A program made the position numbers and the translations under genes. Below, piece by piece: positions 1 through 32,018 of a DNA stretch of 32,018 nt (within the stretch, counting starts at the first letter, position 1; each line of letters starts with the position of its first letter). Source of the DNA: Bacteroidota bacterium (GTDB lineage Bacteria; Bacteroidota; Bacteroidia; Cytophagales; Cyclobacteriaceae); contig JAQCLE010000037.1 in assembly GCA_027592755.1 (NCBI GenBank), forward strand, positions 1 to 32,018. The letters are read 5' to 3'. The notes under the pieces are model-generated. The model ran no database searches and was not told where the DNA came from. It saw nothing but the letters and a program-made list of their open reading frames with translations.

Positions 1-723
1 TTATGATGATTTATTCAAACAGATCAATAATCAATTGGAAGCACATTGCATCATTGTAAAGACCGGAGCCTTGGTTGATGCAAGTATTATAGATAGTCCG
101 CTAAAGCCAAAAGGCAGGCCACATATAAAGTAGCAGAAGATAGAGAAGCAACCGAACGATCCAGTGAGGAGTTAGCAAAAGAAAAGGAGTCAAAAAGACT
201 TGACAAGCAAATAGCCTCCAATGTTGATATAGAAGGGGCCTGGGTTAAAAAAGCCGGAAAGCTACGCTATGGCAATAAAAAGCATCATCTCACCGATGAA
301 CAAGGTTTAATACTGGGAGTAGTCACCACTGCTGCCAACCTTAATGAAATCAGTAATTTGGAAGAGGTTCTTGATAGTGCCCAACTCCCTGAAGGCATTC
401 CAATAAAGGCTGATAAAGGCTACCAATCAAAGAAGAATGCTGATTTATTGGTACGGCGTAAGCTCAAAAATCAGATACTTAAGAAAGCCAAAAAGAATCA
501 TCCATTGACCAAATGGGAAAAGAGATTCAATAAAATCATCGGTCAGACCAGATATAAAGTAGAGCGTACTTTTGGCAGTATCATAAGGTGGTTCCGTGCA
601 GGTGTGGCCAGATATCGGGGAATCAAAAAGATGCACACCCAGAATCTAATGGAGGCCATCAGCTACAACCTTTACAGATCCCCTGGGATAATTATGTCCA
701 ATTCAATCAAAAATTTGAAATAG
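1..723 (+). pseudogene. IS5-family transposase, 5'-truncated and frameshifted
   Basis: This is the C-terminal two thirds of a DDE transposase of the IS5 family, cut by the left edge of the window. Reading from base 2 gives an N-side segment (around VDASIIDSP, with the probable first catalytic Asp) that stops at 131-133. The homologous reading continues in the next frame from about base 121 (TYKVAEDRE) and runs open to the TAG at 721-723, so about one base is missing near 119-121. The second part carries the YGNKKHHLTD motif, the second Asp in ADKGY and the Glu in YKVERTFG, the usual order for this family. The catalytic residues survive but the frameshift should prevent a full product, unless translational frameshifting occurs, which some insertion sequences use. 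The frameshift is read directly; the family call rests on motif recognition. Confidence 0.85.
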
Positions 724-25358: not shown

Positions 25359-26537
25359 TCAGGCCTTCCCGAGTTGCTTATATACCCTGTGGGTAAGAAT
25401 ATCAGCCAGATAGAGATACACGGATAGGAAAAACACATTCAAGTGAATGTTGAAAAAGAAAAATGTTATGATGGAGCAAATCGAAAGGATCAGGAAGTAG
25501 TTCATGAAACCAACCAGTTGCTTTAGTAATTTGAAGTTTTCGTAGAGGTGTTGAATGCGCTTTTCAATGAAATCTCCCGGGTAGAAAACAAGGTAGGACA
25601 GAAAAAGAAAAAAAGTACCAACAAGGATAAAAAAACCGGCATTGACTTTGGTGTCTTTAGCCTCAAGACTGAGTAAAACATTCAGTAGGATCAATGGCCC
25701 GCTTGTGATCTCAAAGATCGTCTCATGAAAGTCGTTTTCCCTGAAGTCGCCAAGGATAACAATCTTTCCATCAATAAAAGCGGCGATGTCTTCGGGAGGC
25801 AGCAGCAGCAACTCACCTAGGTTAATGGGATTAAAGCCCAACTCAATGTCGTCAATGTCTTTTTGCAAGAGCCGGTAGTTTAGAATAAAATGATTGGGCG
25901 TCCATTGGTCACCAATTTTGACAAAGGTCCCTGCCGTTCTTATTGGAATCGGGTTGATCTTTTCGAATACTCTCAGTGGCGTCAATTTGATAGAATCTTG
26001 ATAAAAGAGCTGGTATTTGTACACTCCTTCAAAAATATTCATGGTCAGGTAGTCGGATAGACCGCGATCAACATTATCAAACAAAGGATAAAGCGGCATC
26101 AGGCTGTCATTGAGGTGATAGGACAATACGACATCATCCCGCAATTCCAATTCACCACGTAACAGGTCGTCATTCGGGGTTTCATCCCGGAAAAAAATAT
26201 CACAAATAATTTGCTTCGGCTTGGCCTCTTGTTCATTGATGATGGCAAAAAATTCGTACAATTTCAGCCGGTCGGTAATTACCTGGTTACCAACGGGAAA
26301 GCCGTACTCATCAAAACGATCGATCAGTTCCAGGTCATACGAAACATTAATTAGCGCAATGTCACTGGTAGCAGGTAATTCCCGGTTTTGAAGCTTGATG
26401 GCTGACGTTGCCCAAATGAGGAATTTTTCATCACCAGCCAACCAGGGTAGGCTCATGAACCAGAATGACAATAAAAAAAGTATCCCAACATTAAGGATAC
26501 ATGCAAAAACGATAAATATTTTAAACCTATTACTCAA
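25359..26537 (-). CDS. CHASE2-like membrane sensor protein without output domain
   Basis: A 392-residue membrane protein. An N-terminal helix (about 8-30) leads to a periplasmic domain of about 270 residues with CHASE2-like marks: DIALINVSYD, QIICDIFFRDE, FILNYRLL and, near its end, DGKIVILGDFRENDFHETIF followed by SGPLILLNVLLSL. Three more helices follow (about 301-320, 343-362, 363-381), then a short tail. CHASE2 domains are extracellular sensor modules normally joined to kinases or cyclases; here no kinase, cyclase or DNA-binding part follows. It is the last gene of the caspase operon, starting one base after the FecR-like gene ends, so its output may be through those partners. The CHASE2 call comes from motif order and topology and needs a profile search. 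Confidence 0.65.
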   Translation of the reverse strand: MSNRFKIFIVFACILNVGILFLLSFWFMSLPWLAGDEKFLIWATSAIKLQNRELPATSDIALINVSYDLELIDRFDEYGFPVGNQVITDRLKLYEFFAIINEQEAKPKQIICDIFFRDETPNDDLLRGELELRDDVVLSYHLNDSLMPLYPLFDNVDRGLSDYLTMNIFEGVYKYQLFYQDSIKLTPLRVFEKINPIPIRTAGTFVKIGDQWTPNHFILNYRLLQKDIDDIELGFNPINLGELLLLPPEDIAAFIDGKIVILGDFRENDFHETIFEITSGPLILLNVLLSLEAKDTKVNAGFFILVGTFFLFLSYLVFYPGDFIEKRIQHLYENFKLLKQLVGFMNYFLILSICSIITFFFFNIHLNVFFLSVYLYLADILTHRVYKQLGKA

Positions 26538-26538
26538 C

Positions 26539-27321
26539 TTATTTTAATGTTGACAGTGCAAATCTGATGTTCTCTAACTGACATTTTCCATAAACATCAG
26601 AAACAAGGTTAAAAACATCTGACTCAGCCGGAGGCACCCCATCAAGTGTCATGCCATCTACCAGGTCTTTAAATTCATCGGATGACACCATCACGAGAGG
26701 TAGGGGTGTGATTATTTTTGAAATTTCCTGAGCGCCATCGAAGTAATAAAGTATGTAATCAGAAACTTTATCAACAGGAATCGGCGTGTCGTCCACTTTA
26801 AGCAATTCATTTCTATTAATGATAAGTGAATCTCCACTGTTTGCCATTTTTTTATTAATGGCCTCGCCATTGTATTGATATTGTATGTAGAAAAAATTGT
26901 TAGAATTCTGAGGATAGGATACCGATGACACCTGAATCTTCAATTCAGATCCTACCACAGCAAACTGGTCACCAAAGAAATTTCTGAAATCCAGTGAATT
27001 ATTTATGCCTCCTGCCCTGGTGCTCATCTGACCTCGAACCGGAGTGACAACAGAGCTTAGAACATAAAACAGGTCATTCGAAGAACGTTAATTCGATTCA
27101 GACTTCAATATAAAACGTCCCCTGTCAGGACTTAAAACTGCGGCTACAGCATCAGGTGATTTAAATACAATTTGCTCGTTGGCCCCCACCCGGTCACCTC
27201 GTTTGATGGGTATGTCAGAAGACTTTTTGAGTATCTCTCCCCTAACATGAATGACAGTGTAATCCTGTGCGTATGCACATGATGCCAGAGCAAATAAAAA
27301 AATGGCTAAGATCCGTCGCAT
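26539..27321 (-). pseudogene. exported FecR-like protein, interrupted by in-frame TAA
   Basis: The frame from the ATG at 27321 to the stop at 26539 is 261 codons, broken only by TAA at 27088-27090 (codon 78). Before the stop it encodes a signal peptide (cleavage after CAYAQ) and a domain with the FecR-like pattern: YTVIHVRGEILKK, PIKRGDRVGANEQIVFKS, AVAAVLSPDRGRFILK. After the stop the same frame reads RSSNDLFYVLSSVVTPVRG, then a 162-codon part (starting MSTRAGG) with KIQVSSVSYPQ, a polar middle and GKCQLENIRFAL at the end. The direct continuation argues for one nonsense change, such as CAA to TAA. The gene starts three bases after the caspase stop and ends one base before the CHASE2-like gene. 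If the stop is real, only a 77-residue exported fragment and possibly a leaderless second piece are made. Confidence 0.7.
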
Positions 27322-27324
27322 ATT

Positions 27325-30300
27325 CTAATATACTTGAAAATCGTTTTTAATATTTTCCTCGCGGGAAGTCGGTACTTGTTTTCCACCAGATAGTGTAATC
27401 ACTTGTTCTGAAACATATTCTTGGATTTCCCGAATTGTATAACTCCTGTTTCTATCCAGATCAGCCCTTCGTGTATTTATTCCCTGAATAAGTGAAGAAG
27501 TGAATAGCCCATTTTGAGAGTAGACACCTTCATCTGACGCCAATTCTGCACCACCTGCAGCTGAAATTACAGTAGCTCCTGTTCCTTTTTTCAAATCTCC
27601 AAACAAAGACTTCGAGAGTTCCAGTGTATTTTCAAGACCAAAACTATTTTGCTTGAGCTTTATCAACTTCCCCGTTGACCTAAACGTTGTAGGCCCTATT
27701 ACAACTGATGCTTCATTAACTGATTCCACGTCGTCACTATCAAGTTCTCCCGAATGACAAGTGTCCATCAGCAATAATTTGTTCCTGCAATTGATTCCGT
27801 CCAACAATGCTTCAATTTTATCATAAGGTAATCCTCCGTTTTGAGGATTGTCAAAATCCATATTATGGGTAGCAAAATAGTAATTGTATGAGTTGTCCAA
27901 CACTCCGTGTCCCGCAATGAAAACAATCACAACATCGTCTTCTTTTGCTTCTTCAAAGAAATTTCTCAAAGTTCCGATGTTGGAGAGTGTCGCACTCTCA
28001 TTAGTAAATGATTTCTTATACACGTTTTCATAAATGGAAGACTTCTCAATTGTTGACGCTATATCATCGGCATCTTTTGCAGCAAATTTGAGATTGAATT
28101 TTGATTGCTGATAGACTGAAACACCGATCGTTGCCAGATAGAGGTTGGGCTTAAAATAATCAGCTTCATACTTTACATCAAAAGTGAATGGCAATGAGCT
28201 TGTTCCAGTGGAATTTATTGCTGTTACATCTACTGTATTCAATCCAGCGACAAGATTGAATTCCAGGGTCTTGGAAATGTTCAGTGAGTTGGCTCCCGAA
28301 ACATCAACACCGGAAGAGCCAAACACTGGCACATCATTAACGAACACCATCAACCTATCCAATGCCACGGATGGATCAGAGGCCGCAACGTCAAGACTGA
28401 ACAGCCTCTCTTCCGTTGCGTATGGGAGTTTCTCCAGGTCGATAACTACTTCGGGTAATTCAAAAGTGGTAGAAAGACTTTCTTCACTGAAGCCAAGGCG
28501 CTTAAGCCTCCTTTGATATGCCGCTTTTAAGGAAGCAATTAATTTATCGGACGCATAACCCAGCTTTTCGGCAACAATATCGGGGCGGTTATACTTCAAT
28601 TCGAACTGTTCAAAAGGCAGGATTTTGTTTTCAGTCTTGAAGGCTATAGCCTTTGAAGCCCCTTTGGATGAAGTATAGTAAAAATCCTGTGTGTAAGTGA
28701 TAAAATCAAAGTAATTGATTTGGGCCATTGTAATCTTCAATTCTCCCAAGTTTAGATCGTACATCGAAATTTGCCCCAATTCGTTGGTGGTGATTAGAAA
28801 CTTTTCATCCTTGCTGAAAGTTGCATCTGAAATAATTCCCTTTTGAGTACTCTCAAATGCTATAGTGTTACCCTTTTTTAATGAAAATGAAAATCCATCT
28901 GAAGTGAAGCTATAACCCCCGCTTTCATATTTGTCTTCATAATCCTTAAAGTTTACTCCTTTGAGATTTTTTGCGATCTTGTTTTTTGATTTAGACCAAA
29001 TATGGATGTCTCCTTTTTCCGTACCGGCAAGAAATAAGTCATCATCTTCCTCATCAAATTTCACCCAGGTGATGTTATCCGAGTTCTCAAGAAATGACTT
29101 TAACATTCGCCCATTGTTGAGGTTCCACAATTTAAAAAATCTGGTGTTTGCAGAGGCCGTTAATGCGTAATTACCATCAGCAGATACATCGATGTGAATA
29201 ATATCGGATGCCCTGTCGAAAGTTCTCACCAAAGTACCAGTGGTAATGTCCCACATTGTAAGATCGCGATCCAATGAGCCCACAAGGATGTGTTTGCCAT
29301 CAGGCATCGCATCAACTGCTAAAACAGGTTGTACGAATCCTTCAAGGCTTCTGATTATTCTTCCTGTACCAACATCCCAAAGCTTAATACGACGATCATC
29401 ATCTGAGGAAACCATCGTCTTGTAATCCGGTGACAGAGCAATCGAATTAAGCCAGTTGACATCGCCTGTAAATTCTTTCAACACAGGTGGTTCATATGCT
29501 GCCGATTCGCTTTGCTGATCAGGGAAATCAGCGGTTTCCATATCGTAAATTTTGATAGCATTTTGGATGTTGGCAATGATCTTTGTTTGGTCTTCATTAA
29601 AAACTGCCCTTGTATTTGGATAATTAATTGTCCATCGCTGTGGCTTCTTTACATCTTTAAAGCCAGTTCCGTCTTCCGTGAGTTCAACAATGGAAACCGA
29701 AGTGCCTCCATTTTTTTCTTCCTCACCTTTTGCAGCCATCATTGGCAGATAAGTGTTTTGACATACCAGGATTGATTTCCCGTCTTTTGCATATTCAATA
29801 TTATTATAATTCATGATGTAAAAATCCAACATGCCCTTGCCCACATTGCCTTTGGCTATATTAGCAGCAATCGAAAACCCTGACAATATTGCATAGGTGT
29901 ATGCCTTTGCAGCTCCTGCGGCCTTGTAATGTTTTAAGGCGTCATCCAGAATAGCGCCATTAGTCAGATCAATCAATAGTACCTCAACATCGTTTGTTTT
30001 TTGCCCGCCAACAACAGCTTTAGTCCCATCTGGGGATATACCCATCGCCCTGACTTCGGATGTCATCGCCTCTATAATTTGTTCAAGTTGGCCGCTTTGT
30101 ATACCCCACTTTTTAATTTTTTCGTCAATGCTTCCGGTATAAAAGGATAGCCCATCCTTAGTTAATTCAATCGTATTAATCACTCCTTCATGAGCGTCGA
30201 TTTTTGAAAGTGCCTCCTCATTCCCACCAACTTCCCAGATAAAAAGTTTTCCATCCGCATCTCCTGAGATTAACTTATTGCCATCAGGAGTTATGTTTAA

Positions 30301-30534
30301 CGCCTTTACCGCAGCAATATGTCCGGTGAAGTTTTTTACATCAACCCCGGTTTTGAGATCCCACATCTTTATTGTCTTATCATCGCTTGCTGAAAAAACA
30401 AAGTCACCGTCCGGTGAATAAATTACCTTGTTGATGGCGGCTTTATGACCTTGGCGAATTACCAGTTCTGGTTGTCCAAAAGATGGGTCCCAGATCAATA
30501 AGATAATTAACAATATAGAAGCTGATCTGACCAT
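27325..30534 (-). CDS. exported WD40-repeat caspase-family protease
   Basis: A 1069-residue protein. A signal peptide (about residues 1-20: VRSASILLIILLIWDPSFGQ) is followed by WD40 repeats at about 25-195 (DDKTIKMWDLKTG) and about 350-520 (DRRIKLWDVGTG, SLDRDLTMWDITTG). A hydrophobic Ala-rich insert (about 205-245) lies between them. Next come further propeller-like sequence, an Ig-like segment (about 710-790) and a C-terminal caspase-like p20 domain (about 800-1065). The catalytic pair is His876 in FIAGHGVLD and Cys926 in LLMDTCHSGE; an acidic run follows the Cys, as in metacaspase-like enzymes. The domain looks active. The frame reaches an ATG at 30585, but a terminator hairpin occupies that extra region, so the start at 30534 is used. 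The position of the signal peptide makes it periplasmic or surface-linked, unlike the cytosolic caspases of known defence systems. The substrate is unknown. Confidence 0.88.
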   Translation of the reverse strand: MVRSASILLIILLIWDPSFGQPELVIRQGHKAAINKVIYSPDGDFVFSASDDKTIKMWDLKTGVDVKNFTGHIAAVKALNITPDGNKLISGDADGKLFIWEVGGNEEALSKIDAHEGVINTIELTKDGLSFYTGSIDEKIKKWGIQSGQLEQIIEAMTSEVRAMGISPDGTKAVVGGQKTNDVEVLLIDLTNGAILDDALKHYKAAGAAKAYTYAILSGFSIAANIAKGNVGKGMLDFYIMNYNNIEYAKDGKSILVCQNTYLPMMAAKGEEEKNGGTSVSIVELTEDGTGFKDVKKPQRWTINYPNTRAVFNEDQTKIIANIQNAIKIYDMETADFPDQQSESAAYEPPVLKEFTGDVNWLNSIALSPDYKTMVSSDDDRRIKLWDVGTGRIIRSLEGFVQPVLAVDAMPDGKHILVGSLDRDLTMWDITTGTLVRTFDRASDIIHIDVSADGNYALTASANTRFFKLWNLNNGRMLKSFLENSDNITWVKFDEEDDDLFLAGTEKGDIHIWSKSKNKIAKNLKGVNFKDYEDKYESGGYSFTSDGFSFSLKKGNTIAFESTQKGIISDATFSKDEKFLITTNELGQISMYDLNLGELKITMAQINYFDFITYTQDFYYTSSKGASKAIAFKTENKILPFEQFELKYNRPDIVAEKLGYASDKLIASLKAAYQRRLKRLGFSEESLSTTFELPEVVIDLEKLPYATEERLFSLDVAASDPSVALDRLMVFVNDVPVFGSSGVDVSGANSLNISKTLEFNLVAGLNTVDVTAINSTGTSSLPFTFDVKYEADYFKPNLYLATIGVSVYQQSKFNLKFAAKDADDIASTIEKSSIYENVYKKSFTNESATLSNIGTLRNFFEEAKEDDVVIVFIAGHGVLDNSYNYYFATHNMDFDNPQNGGLPYDKIEALLDGINCRNKLLLMDTCHSGELDSDDVESVNEASVVIGPTTFRSTGKLIKLKQNSFGLENTLELSKSLFGDLKKGTGATVISAAGGAELASDEGVYSQNGLFTSSLIQGINTRRADLDRNRSYTIREIQEYVSEQVITLSGGKQVPTSREENIKNDFQVY

Positions 30535-30545
30535 GACTTGAAGGG

Positions 30546-30576
30546 TTAAAAAAGAGGCTCCCCATACTGAGGAGCC
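30546..30576 (-). terminator. terminator-like hairpin just before the caspase start codon
   Basis: On the minus strand GGCTCC (30576-30571) pairs with GGAGCC (30561-30556) across a nine-base loop and is followed by TCTTTTTT. This has the form of an intrinsic terminator. It lies 20 bases after the stop of the propeller gene, and its T tract ends about a dozen bases before the caspase ATG at 30534, leaving no room for a promoter between. It may act as an attenuator. Confidence 0.7.
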
Positions 30577-30596
30577 CTTAAACACTTGATTTTTTC

Positions 30597-32018
30597 TTAA
30601 AAACTATAACTTATGATTTGGGTTTTTGAAGCTTTATGGAAAACCTGCCCTGAAATTGGATCGAAATCATATATAGGCTCTTTATCTCCCAATTGAATTC
30701 TTCCTAGCTCCTCACCTGTTCTTTTGTCAACTTTAACCAGACCTGATGCTTTTCCCTGTCCACCTTCCCCCACAAGGGAGAGTATGACTTTCAGATCCCC
30801 TTTTTCTTTTGTCGCGGTAAATTTCTTCTTTGCCTCGGATCCTGCAGCACCTGCTATTGCCATCCAATCGTCAGCTTGCTGTGCATACATTTTGCTATAA
30901 TAATTATCCATTGGTATAGATCCATAATTATTTCTGGCTTGCGCTGATTGCGCTGAAGCTGATACAGCCATGGCTACAGCGGCTACTTGCATCGTTCTTA
31001 AAGCAATTTTTGCCGCAAGACTCAACCCTGGTGCAGGCCAGTTTTGATTGAACCTTACACTCCCATCGGTTTCCAGCATCATCAGGTTATTGGCTGAACT
31101 CAAGAGGTAACCACCTTCAACAAGCTCTATGCTTTCAGGTACCTGATCATCCTTAAATTCCTTATCAATTTTTCCTTTTAAAACATTATAAGTCCCTTCA
31201 TTCAAATCAACCTCATAGAGATCGCCATCAGCATACATGAGATCAATATCAAAAGCAGCCCTATAGCGGAGTGATGGGGTAGGGAGCATACCTTTATTAG
31301 CCCATACTTTCTCTCCATCATAAGTGATAATGCCTAAACGGCCTTTTTCATCGGTGTACATAATTCCTTTGCCAACCATTTGGTCGATATTGATACCCTT
31401 TACTTTCTCCTCCCATTTAACTGATCCGTCGTTTCGATCAAGCAAGATCAATTGCTTGTCCTTCGCTGCGACAGCAATACCATAGGCTCCAACATCAACC
31501 ACATAATTAATGTCCTTGATTTTAGTTTCCCATTTGGTCGCTCCACTCTGAAGGTCATATAAACTGAAAAATTTGCTATCGACTACAACGACTCCATCTT
31601 TGATTGCAAACATTTGCGGAACTTCGGCAAGCTTATACTCTACTGACCAAATAGGTGAACCCGTGCTGAGATTAAGTGCAATTAACTGGCCCGTATTTTT
31701 CTTCTTCTCAAAGAAATAACCTGTCGTCAAATCAAGGCTGACATCAAATTTTTCAAACGTTTGTTTCTTTTCAGACACGTCATAAGACCACATGACATTG
31801 CCACTCTTGGCGTCTATTTTGGCTATGCGTTCTAACCCGGCCAGAATTAGATTCCCATCGAGTGCAATCATTGGCAAAGCATCAATACCGATTTGATCTG
31901 TTTCCCAACGAATCTCTCCACTGGGTAAATCGATGAATTTAGTTATTTGTACACAACTATCCGAAAGTCTAATTTCAAAAAACGGATAAAATAGCGGAAA
32001 AAGTTCAAACCTTTGAGG
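30597..32018 (-). CDS. PQQ-type beta-propeller protein, 5' end beyond the window
   Basis: The frame is open from the stop at 30597-30599 to the right edge of the window, so the gene is partial at its N-terminus; at least 473 codons are present. The repeats follow the PQQ/BamB-like propeller pattern: DLPSGEIRWET, IDAKSGNVMWSYDV, LNLSTGSPIWSVEY, YDLQSGATKWETKI, LDRNDGSVKWEEKV and VDKRTGEELGRIQL. An Ala-rich, hydrophobic insert (LAAKIALRTMQVAAVAMAVS) interrupts the propeller, followed by a Tyr/Met/Gln-rich segment and AGAAGSEAKKKF. PQQ cofactor residues are not evident, so this is more likely a structural or binding propeller than an enzyme. It is the first visible gene of the caspase operon; a signal peptide cannot be judged because the start is missing. 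The ATG-like start at 31871 would cut into the repeat array and is not the real start. Confidence 0.75.
   Translation of the reverse strand, partial: PQRFELFPLFYPFFEIRLSDSCVQITKFIDLPSGEIRWETDQIGIDALPMIALDGNLILAGLERIAKIDAKSGNVMWSYDVSEKKQTFEKFDVSLDLTTGYFFEKKKNTGQLIALNLSTGSPIWSVEYKLAEVPQMFAIKDGVVVVDSKFFSLYDLQSGATKWETKIKDINYVVDVGAYGIAVAAKDKQLILLDRNDGSVKWEEKVKGINIDQMVGKGIMYTDEKGRLGIITYDGEKVWANKGMLPTPSLRYRAAFDIDLMYADGDLYEVDLNEGTYNVLKGKIDKEFKDDQVPESIELVEGGYLLSSANNLMMLETDGSVRFNQNWPAPGLSLAAKIALRTMQVAAVAMAVSASAQSAQARNNYGSIPMDNYYSKMYAQQADDWMAIAGAAGSEAKKKFTATKEKGDLKVILSLVGEGGQGKASGLVKVDKRTGEELGRIQLGDKEPIYDFDPISGQVFHKASKTQIISYSF

What the first reader, a model, noticed from the sequence alone, without database searches (positions are those of the whole stretch)
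25359..32018. Candidate envelope caspase system: propeller, WD40-caspase, FecR-like and CHASE2-like genes in one operon
Seen: four same-strand genes; the last three are spaced by 3 and 1 bases. The caspase has intact His/Cys motifs and a signal peptide, the FecR-like protein has a signal peptide, and the CHASE2-like protein has a large periplasmic domain and no output domain. Known: bacterial caspases in described defence systems mostly act in the cytosol, while CHASE2 and FecR domains are sensors or envelope modules. Inference: an envelope-located protease with sensor-like partners, perhaps for stress response, surface processing or cell death. I do not know a characterised system with this exact set.
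Basis: partly seen in the sequence, partly recalled or inferred. Interest (0 to 1): 0.72.

Follow-up and report, generated by a model that had tools for sequence, protein, structure and literature searches.

The report
Membrane sensor paired with exported caspase
In many Bacteroidota a membrane sensor with no signalling output of its own sits beside a small secreted partner and, repeatedly, beside a secreted caspase-like protease; this window holds a slightly broken copy of that gene set.

Summary
Four same-strand genes lie at 25359-32018. The caspase has an intact His/Cys pair and a signal-peptide-like start. The last gene is a true CHASE2 relative that ends after its fourth predicted membrane helix. 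The "FecR" label fails: none of 21 relatives matches Pfam FecR. That protein is a signal peptide, a beta region, an Ig-like domain and a helical tail. In the window its gene is cut by an in-frame TAA (27088-27090), the only split copy among 52 genes. The propeller gene runs into a repeat found at 39 other contig ends, probably a mobile element. The Ig-like partner lies next to CHASE2 in 46 of 82 loci. A caspase lies within two genes in 17 of 82 (16 same strand), where caspase density predicts about one at most. The linked caspases come from several caspase clades. The link is real, recurrent and modular but not universal; the propeller is not core. Best model: an output-less envelope sensor working with an exported caspase. 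Not found described in the papers searched.

The parts
31952..32018 (.). end of a multi-copy repeat, probably the terminus of an insertion sequence; interrupts or abuts the 5' part of the propeller gene
   Evidence: near-identical matches of 65 or more bases in 39 other contigs of the same genome (40 of 71 candidates scored), all at or within 30 bases of a contig end; blastn boundary at 31947-31952 in seven of eight matches, 31934 in the other
30597..31951 (-). PQQ/BamB-type beta-propeller protein, 5' end missing; not part of the conserved core
   Evidence: PF13360 E=3.2e-15; NCBIfam BamB model E=1.1e-13 but far below its cut-off; no homologue at E<=1e-4 in the fetched neighbourhoods apart from the shared repeat
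27325..30534 (-). exported WD40-caspase (ATG at 30534; GTG at 30585 also open); caspase domain 27340-28128; His codon 27907-27909, Cys codon 27757-27759
   Evidence: PF00656 E=6.8e-13 and WD40 repeats; dyad and start positions
26539..27321 (-).
   Evidence: family alignment; model of a relative; Ig-like matches
27088..27090 (-). in-frame TAA stop codon that splits the gene above
   Evidence: of 51 other family genes, 50 are open (254-477 aa) and 1 is cut by a contig end
25359..26537 (-). CHASE2-type membrane sensor with four predicted membrane helices and no cytoplasmic output domain
   Evidence: model pLDDT 88.7, helices 3-28, 300-318, 336-362, 368-391 of 392 residues; profile-profile match to five CHASE2 proteins of the phylum E=1.4e-10; PF05226 in 27 of 33 family members

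Best explanation
The genes belong to a modular envelope sensing system of Bacteroidota. The constant part is a pair: an inner-membrane CHASE2 protein whose large domain faces the periplasm and which ends after its fourth membrane helix, and an exported Ig-like partner encoded next to it. The recurrent extra part is an exported caspase-type protease with a WD40, TPR, Sel1 or other N-terminal region. Most likely the pair senses a ligand or a fault in the envelope and switches or localises the caspase on the same side of the membrane, which then cleaves an envelope substrate. In some relatives the same sensor instead carries a cytoplasmic nucleotide cyclase, so output looks exchangeable. SHOWN: gene order, recurrent linkage, export-signal-like starts, catalytic residues, predicted sensor topology, cyclase-bearing relatives. 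INFERRED: physical contact, direction of control, substrate, ligand. In this window the copy is probably damaged (stop codon in the partner gene, propeller cut by a repeat).
For: Partner adjacent in 46 of 82 loci and within three genes in 50; caspase within two genes in 17 of 82, 16 on the same strand (L128, opposite strand and doubtful, not counted). 20 of 306 slots within two genes hold a caspase, L128 included; expected 0.34 at 1 caspase per Mb (301 found in 301 Mb of 56 of the genomes, a lower bound) or 1.0 at three times that density, assuming 900 genes per Mb. Loci without linkage hold 1 caspase in 720 slots, and that one is L128. Caspase junctions are -35 to 71 bases at 10 of the 13 linked loci measured, 104-237 at L057, L085 and L087 (starts taken at the first Met). 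Linked caspases fall among unlinked ones, at least 9 label changes forced by supported branches, which fits repeated recruitment. Export signals by heuristic in 24 of 27 and both catalytic motifs by pattern in 23 of 27 caspase frames at these loci. Same order WD40-caspase, partner, CHASE2 in L182 of another order. CHASE2-cyclase relatives L082 and L137, L157.
Against: 65 of 82 loci have no counted caspase within two genes, among them all three other loci of the window's own family, so the pair works without one nearby. L137 has both a cyclase output and a neighbouring caspase, so the caspase may act before the sensor rather than as its output. The linked label is more clustered than shuffles on both trees (8 of 500 shuffles as low for caspases; 1 of 500 for CHASE2, where only 4 changes are forced), so recruitments are fewer than loci. 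The CHASE2 tree is a quick one and unresolved at the window branch. Linkage does not show contact. The window copy is broken. The 82 loci include close relatives (for example L065-L068, L072-L076), two same-genus pairs among the linked loci, and long CHASE2 proteins with a cyclase (L082, L137, L157) or of about the length of L157 (L158-L160).
Confidence: 0.5

Rival explanations
1. The caspase acts before the sensor: an exported protease cascade (caspase, sometimes with an HtrA/DegS-like protease) processes the partner or makes a peptide that the CHASE2 protein detects, in the manner of envelope-stress proteolysis. The sensor signals through something encoded elsewhere.
For: L184 and L179 carry a serine-protease-like gene directly before a caspase gene (for order; NCBIfam Do-family E=2.4e-53 for L184, below that model's cut-off; L179's gene matches PADLOC protease models). 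L137 pairs a caspase with a CHASE2-cyclase, which has its own output.
Against: The window's and most caspase-linked CHASE2 proteins look too short for an output domain (frames of 394-466 aa at 15 of 17 linked loci, L127 491, L137 618), so no cytoplasmic reader is in sight; the HtrA-like gene was noticed at only two loci and not searched for.
Confidence: 0.25
2. The CHASE2/Ig-like pair is a free-standing sensor with an unlinked cytoplasmic partner; caspases are opportunistic neighbours that share only a promoter.
For: 65 of 82 loci lack a counted nearby caspase.
Against: Caspase density next to the pair is 20 to 60 times the assumed genome density and 18 of 20 are same-strand; it recurs with different caspase clades.
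Confidence: 0.15
3. In this genome the locus is a decaying remnant with no present function (this can be true together with any of the others).
For: In-frame stop in the partner gene, propeller truncated at a high-copy repeat, no CHASE2 match in the one same-genus genome searched (G001, 91% complete).
Against: Caspase and CHASE2 frames are intact with conserved residues; the rest of the partner frame is open; a base-call error at one position cannot be excluded.
Confidence: 0.4
4. A defence or self-killing system in which the caspase is a toxic effector.
For: Caspases are effectors in described conflict systems (PMC7159879, passages and section 33), and CHASE2 occurs as a variable domain in TRADD-N/EACC2 systems (PMC8195603, one passage); match to the PADLOC caspase model E=5.5e-9 and, over the WD40 part, to HEAT-ARM_XIII E=8.1e-19; NCBIfam EACC1-type caspase below its cut-off (74.3 vs 140 bits).
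Against: Caspase looks exported rather than cytosolic; PADLOC gives no hit for the CHASE2 protein, and for the partner family (L116) only a weak LmuA match (E=9.4e-5). EACC1, vWA, MoxR and NTPase partners were not searched for.
Confidence: 0.1

Closest known systems
Metacaspase-CHASE2 fusion of Trichodesmium erythraeum (PMC3501461, section 9 read)
   Same: Caspase domain combined with a CHASE2 sensor that has one membrane helix before and three after it
   Different: There one polypeptide with the caspase predicted in the cytoplasm; here separate genes with an exported caspase and an extra Ig-like partner
LysM-FecR plus CHASE2 histidine kinase 'BiofilmReg' operon of Burkholderia (PMC5192318, passages read)
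   Same: A small exported protein encoded directly before a CHASE2 membrane sensor
   Different: Sensor carries a histidine kinase; partner has a FecR domain; no caspase in the passages seen
mtxA followed by a CHASE2-adenylate cyclase gene in Magnetospirillum (PMC4439547, passages read)
   Same: Exported protein with a beta region, an Ig-like domain and a helical end next to a CHASE2 gene; layout like the partner modelled here
   Different: MtxA (PDB 4Z29) was not in the rows shown for our model; sensor has a cyclase; no caspase in the passages seen
CHASE2 cyclases CyaD1/CyaD2/CyaK with outer-membrane NsrA in Sinorhizobium meliloti (PMC13001267, passages read)
   Same: CHASE2 sensing that depends on another envelope protein
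   Different: Output is cAMP; no protease and no Ig-like partner in the passages seen
EACC1-caspase two-gene membrane-associated system (PMC7159879, section 33 read)
   Same: Membrane component plus caspase, with a cyclase as a less frequent alternative to the caspase
   Different: Single-helix EACC1 and no CHASE2 in the section read; described as prevalent in actinobacteria
TRADD-N/EACC2 systems with CHASE2 as a variable C-terminal domain (PMC8195603, one passage read)
   Same: CHASE2 receptor domain within a multi-gene system
   Different: Fused to EACC2, one of several alternative domains; TRADD-N was not searched for here

Membership tests
CHASE2 (PF05226) | sequence match to the family profile | tested here: met
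   27 of 33 family members, the window's included, match at E<=1, best 9.8e-10; profile-profile E=1.4e-10 against five CHASE2 proteins of the phylum, of which L157 scores E=9.1e-45 and L156 E=2.2e-27 to PF05226. The window protein alone is below the curated cut-off.
CHASE2 (PF05226) | one membrane helix before and three after the extracytoplasmic domain (layout as in PMC3501461 and PMC5192318) | tested here: met
   (predicted model; sidedness not tested)
CHASE2 sensor proteins | cytoplasmic output domain (kinase or cyclase) | tested here: not met
   protein ends at residue 392, right after helix 368-391; L082, L137 and L157 do have cyclases
FecR (PF04773) | sequence match to the family profile | tested here: not met
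   0 of 21 relatives (threshold 10, filters drop most matches above about 0.1); profile comparison with a small three-sequence FecR alignment, probability 0.2%; both window halves negative at E<=1
Peptidase C14 caspase (PF00656) | caspase domain with His/Cys dyad | tested here: met
   E=6.8e-13; AGHG and DTCHSG motifs
Peptidase C14 caspase (PF00656) | proteolytic activity after basic residues | not testable with these tools
   specificity stated for orthocaspases in the start of the abstract of PMC6426788 (seen in listings)
EACC1-associated caspase (NF047832) | score over the curated cut-off | tested here: not met
   74.3 bits against 140
EACC1-caspase conflict system | EACC1 single-helix gene 5' of the caspase | tested here: inconclusive
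   the gene 5' of the caspase is a propeller; the contig ends there; no EACC1 profile was run
MtxA-like CHASE2 partner | same fold as PDB 4Z29 | tested here: inconclusive
   Ig-like domain matched by other chains, best Z 6.1, a level that may mean only a common arrangement; 4Z29 not among the rows shown
CHASE2/partner/caspase gene set described here | all three genes adjacent and same strand | tested here: met
   but the partner gene is split by a stop codon

The most novel reading that the evidence does not exclude
A sensor-gated protease system that works wholly on the outer side of the inner membrane: an output-less CHASE2 receptor and its Ig-like partner control exported caspases, with the protease in place of the kinase or cyclase that CHASE2 sensors usually carry, assembled several times over in Bacteroidota with different caspases.
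Probability: 0.35. Interest if true: 0.82.

Novelty: new variant of a known kind. Interest (0 to 1): 0.62.

Why it matters
PMC5192318 (2016, passage read) says the signals recognised by CHASE2 are not known; the only input I saw named is indirect, a plant ribosomal protein sensed through NsrA for the Sinorhizobium CHASE2 cyclases (PMC13001267, passage). The functions of prokaryotic caspase homologues were called largely unknown or nearly so in a 2012 survey (PMC3501461; the start of the abstract, as listed, breaks off at that point). A recurrent gene set that places a CHASE2 sensor, a fixed secreted partner and an exported caspase side by side makes both questions testable: the partner and caspase are candidate co-receptors, targets or outputs. 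If the caspase is the output, sensing and response would happen without crossing the membrane, which would be unusual. No paper on this gene set was found in the searches for CHASE2+FecR, CHASE2+caspase, CHASE2+caspase+Bacteroidota (0 papers) or 'CHASE2 domain'; most subscription papers are not held.

Tried and rejected
FecR identity: rejected. The propeller as a core part: rejected; no homologue at E<=1e-4 in the fetched neighbourhoods. A solved structure like CHASE2: none with E<=0.001 or Z>=5 among the 998 chains compared; no PDB sequence match at E<=1 for either family; this does not show a new fold. PADLOC and NCBIfam did not file the system under a known one. A search of the named genome collection with the broad alignment A1 failed because no stretch was conserved enough; a closer set of seven (A3) gave 23 named loci. 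The L128 caspase hit (opposite strand, long branch, no PF00656 match in that genome) was dropped from the locus count but stays in the slot counts, the motif counts and the caspase tree. L120 (broken CHASE2 pieces) was dropped. Four weak hits were not fetched (G227:C63, G1014:C8, G908:C30, G1368:C16). The genome-wide caspase count is a lower bound: G547 shows 0, and the linked caspases of G033 and G140 are not in the listed rows, although L125, L019 and L135 hold them. The 20 unlinked caspases fetched for the tree were picked by hand from the listing; five more came from the own genome. The CHASE2 tree left out L120, L128, L130, L134, L136, L157-L160 and L183. Signal peptides were judged by a hydrophobicity heuristic or by eye, not by a dedicated predictor.
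Full report
What is there. The window is the whole of contig C85 of a 4.2 Mb, 196-contig assembly. On the minus strand lie a propeller gene (to 30597), a WD40-caspase (27325-30534 from its likely ATG), a small exported protein (26539-27321) and a CHASE2-like membrane protein (25359-26537). The next gene downstream, an Omp85-type protein, is on the other strand.

The small gene has an in-frame TAA at 27088-27090; the frame is otherwise open on both sides, 78 and 182 codons. Among 52 family genes in the loci analysed it is the only split one; 50 others are open (254-477 aa) and one is cut by a contig end. A nonsense mutation is the simplest reading, but a single base error cannot be excluded. 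Second, the last 67 or so bases of the window recur in 39 other contigs of the same genome (40 of 71 candidates were scored), all at or within 30 bases of a contig end. So the assembly breaks inside a high-copy element, and the propeller frame loses its native 5' end there.

Family calls. CHASE2 holds: the window protein alone is below the Pfam cut-off, but 27 of 33 family members match PF05226, and profile-profile comparison with five CHASE2 proteins of the same phylum gives E=1.4e-10. A confident model (pLDDT 88.7) shows helix, folded domain, three helices, end. FecR fails in each test tried, the profile comparison being a weak test because only three FecR sequences were used. The partner, modelled from a full-length relative with 13 sequences (mean pLDDT 79.4), is a beta region of moderate confidence, an Ig-like domain and three C-terminal helices. 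Caspase holds.

Distribution. The CHASE2-like protein was found in 45 of 390 genomes of its order, the own genome included, 9 of 395 in a class sample, 11 of 395 in a phylum sample, several of them weak, and 11 of 295 in the order of Bacteroidales UBA1182; the samples overlap in part. Named carriers include Flexithrix dorotheae, Microscilla sp. and Kriegella aquimaris.

Neighbourhoods. In 82 loci with flanks (window included), the partner is the immediate neighbour in 46 and within three genes in 50. Two further partner-like genes that the profile missed stand next to CHASE2 in L121 and L184 by eye. A caspase is within two genes in 17 loci: the window, L019, L057, L085, L087, L121, L125, L126, L127, L129 (opposite strand), L132, L135, L137, L179, L182, L184, L185. 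L155 has two more on the same strand, farther away. L085/L087 and L126/L127 are same-genus pairs. L125 has four caspase genes with starts and a fifth frame cut by the end of the stretch, in tandem before CHASE2. Density: 20 of 306 slots within two genes (18 same strand, L128 included), against 0.34 expected from 301 caspases in 301 Mb at an assumed 900 genes per Mb, or 1.0 at three times that density; loci without linkage have 1 in 720 slots, the L128 hit. The loci were found through CHASE2 profiles, not through caspases, although the broad profile A4 does include CHASE2 sequences from caspase-linked loci. Against the link: the three other loci of the window's own family (L018, L070, L086) have no caspase within two genes.

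Recruitment. In a tree of 52 caspase domains (27 from these loci, 25 unlinked) the linked ones do not form one group: 13 label changes, at least 9 forced by supported branches; they are still more clustered than shuffled labels (8 of 500 shuffles as low). The window caspase is nearest to an unlinked paralogue in its own genome and lies in a supported set of five with the linked caspases of L179 and L182 and one unlinked caspase of G741. Regions before the caspase domain vary: WD40 (window, L019, L116, L182; L179 by its N-terminus only, not scanned), TPR (L125, one of two in L184), Sel1 (L121, L185); in L155 Sel1 follows it. Export signals by heuristic are seen in 24 of 27, and both catalytic motifs by pattern in 23 of 27, caspase frames at the loci. 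By eye the six other caspases found in this genome also look exported, so export by itself is not special to this set.

Output. The window protein ends at its last helix. L082 and L137 carry a guanylate/adenylate cyclase domain after CHASE2, as does L157, where a gene with a Pfam FecR match lies two genes upstream. The sensor is therefore one module and the output another; L137 combines cyclase and caspase, which is the main evidence that the caspase need not be the output.

Model and limits. I think it most likely that the CHASE2/Ig-like pair controls or positions an exported caspase in the periplasm. Linkage, predicted topology and catalytic residues are shown; contact, direction and substrate are inferred. 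A caspase acting before the sensor is the strongest rival, helped by an HtrA/DegS-like gene at L184 and a similar protease gene at L179. The window copy itself may no longer work.

Known relatives. A caspase-CHASE2 fusion in Trichodesmium (PMC3501461, section 9), LysM-FecR with a CHASE2 kinase in Burkholderia (PMC5192318, passages), MtxA with a CHASE2 cyclase in Magnetospirillum (PMC4439547, passages), CHASE2 cyclases with NsrA in Sinorhizobium (PMC13001267, passages), EACC1-caspase systems (PMC7159879, section 33) and TRADD-N/EACC2 systems with CHASE2 (PMC8195603, one passage) each share part of the set; in what I read none has an output-less CHASE2 with an exported caspase. Searches that found no paper on this gene set.

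Noticed in passing
window 31952-32018: A repeat that ends at least 40 contigs of this genome (window included); likely the terminus of an insertion sequence in high copy that fragments the assembly. C185 starts with it too.
   Followed up: partly
window 1-500, + strand: The other contig end reads as part of an IS5-like transposase (my recollection of the family, no profile run), with a frame change near position 120-130.
   Followed up: no
L125 (G547:C96): Four exported caspase genes and a fifth frame cut by the end of the stretch, in tandem directly before CHASE2 and the partner gene.
   Followed up: partly
L137:4026-5879 and L082:3895-6066: CHASE2 proteins of this family fused to a guanylate/adenylate cyclase; the L137 one sits beside a caspase.
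   Followed up: partly
L184:5762-7252, L179:15017-16486: HtrA/DegS-like serine protease gene (Do-family E=2.4e-53 for L184; L179 by similar protease hits) directly before a caspase gene at two CHASE2 loci.
   Followed up: no
L212 (G000:C185:2713-3928): Another caspase of the window's genome appears split over two frames (279 and 142 aa), another damaged gene of these kinds in this genome.
   Followed up: no
L077, L078, L081 (upstream of CHASE2): A conserved protein of about 1020 aa (TPR matches in L078) stands directly before CHASE2 in the place of the partner gene in three genomes of one genus.
   Followed up: no
L065-L068, L072-L076: In one genus (g71) the pair is flanked by the same two small genes (clusters c6 upstream and c5 downstream) in nine genomes.
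   Followed up: no
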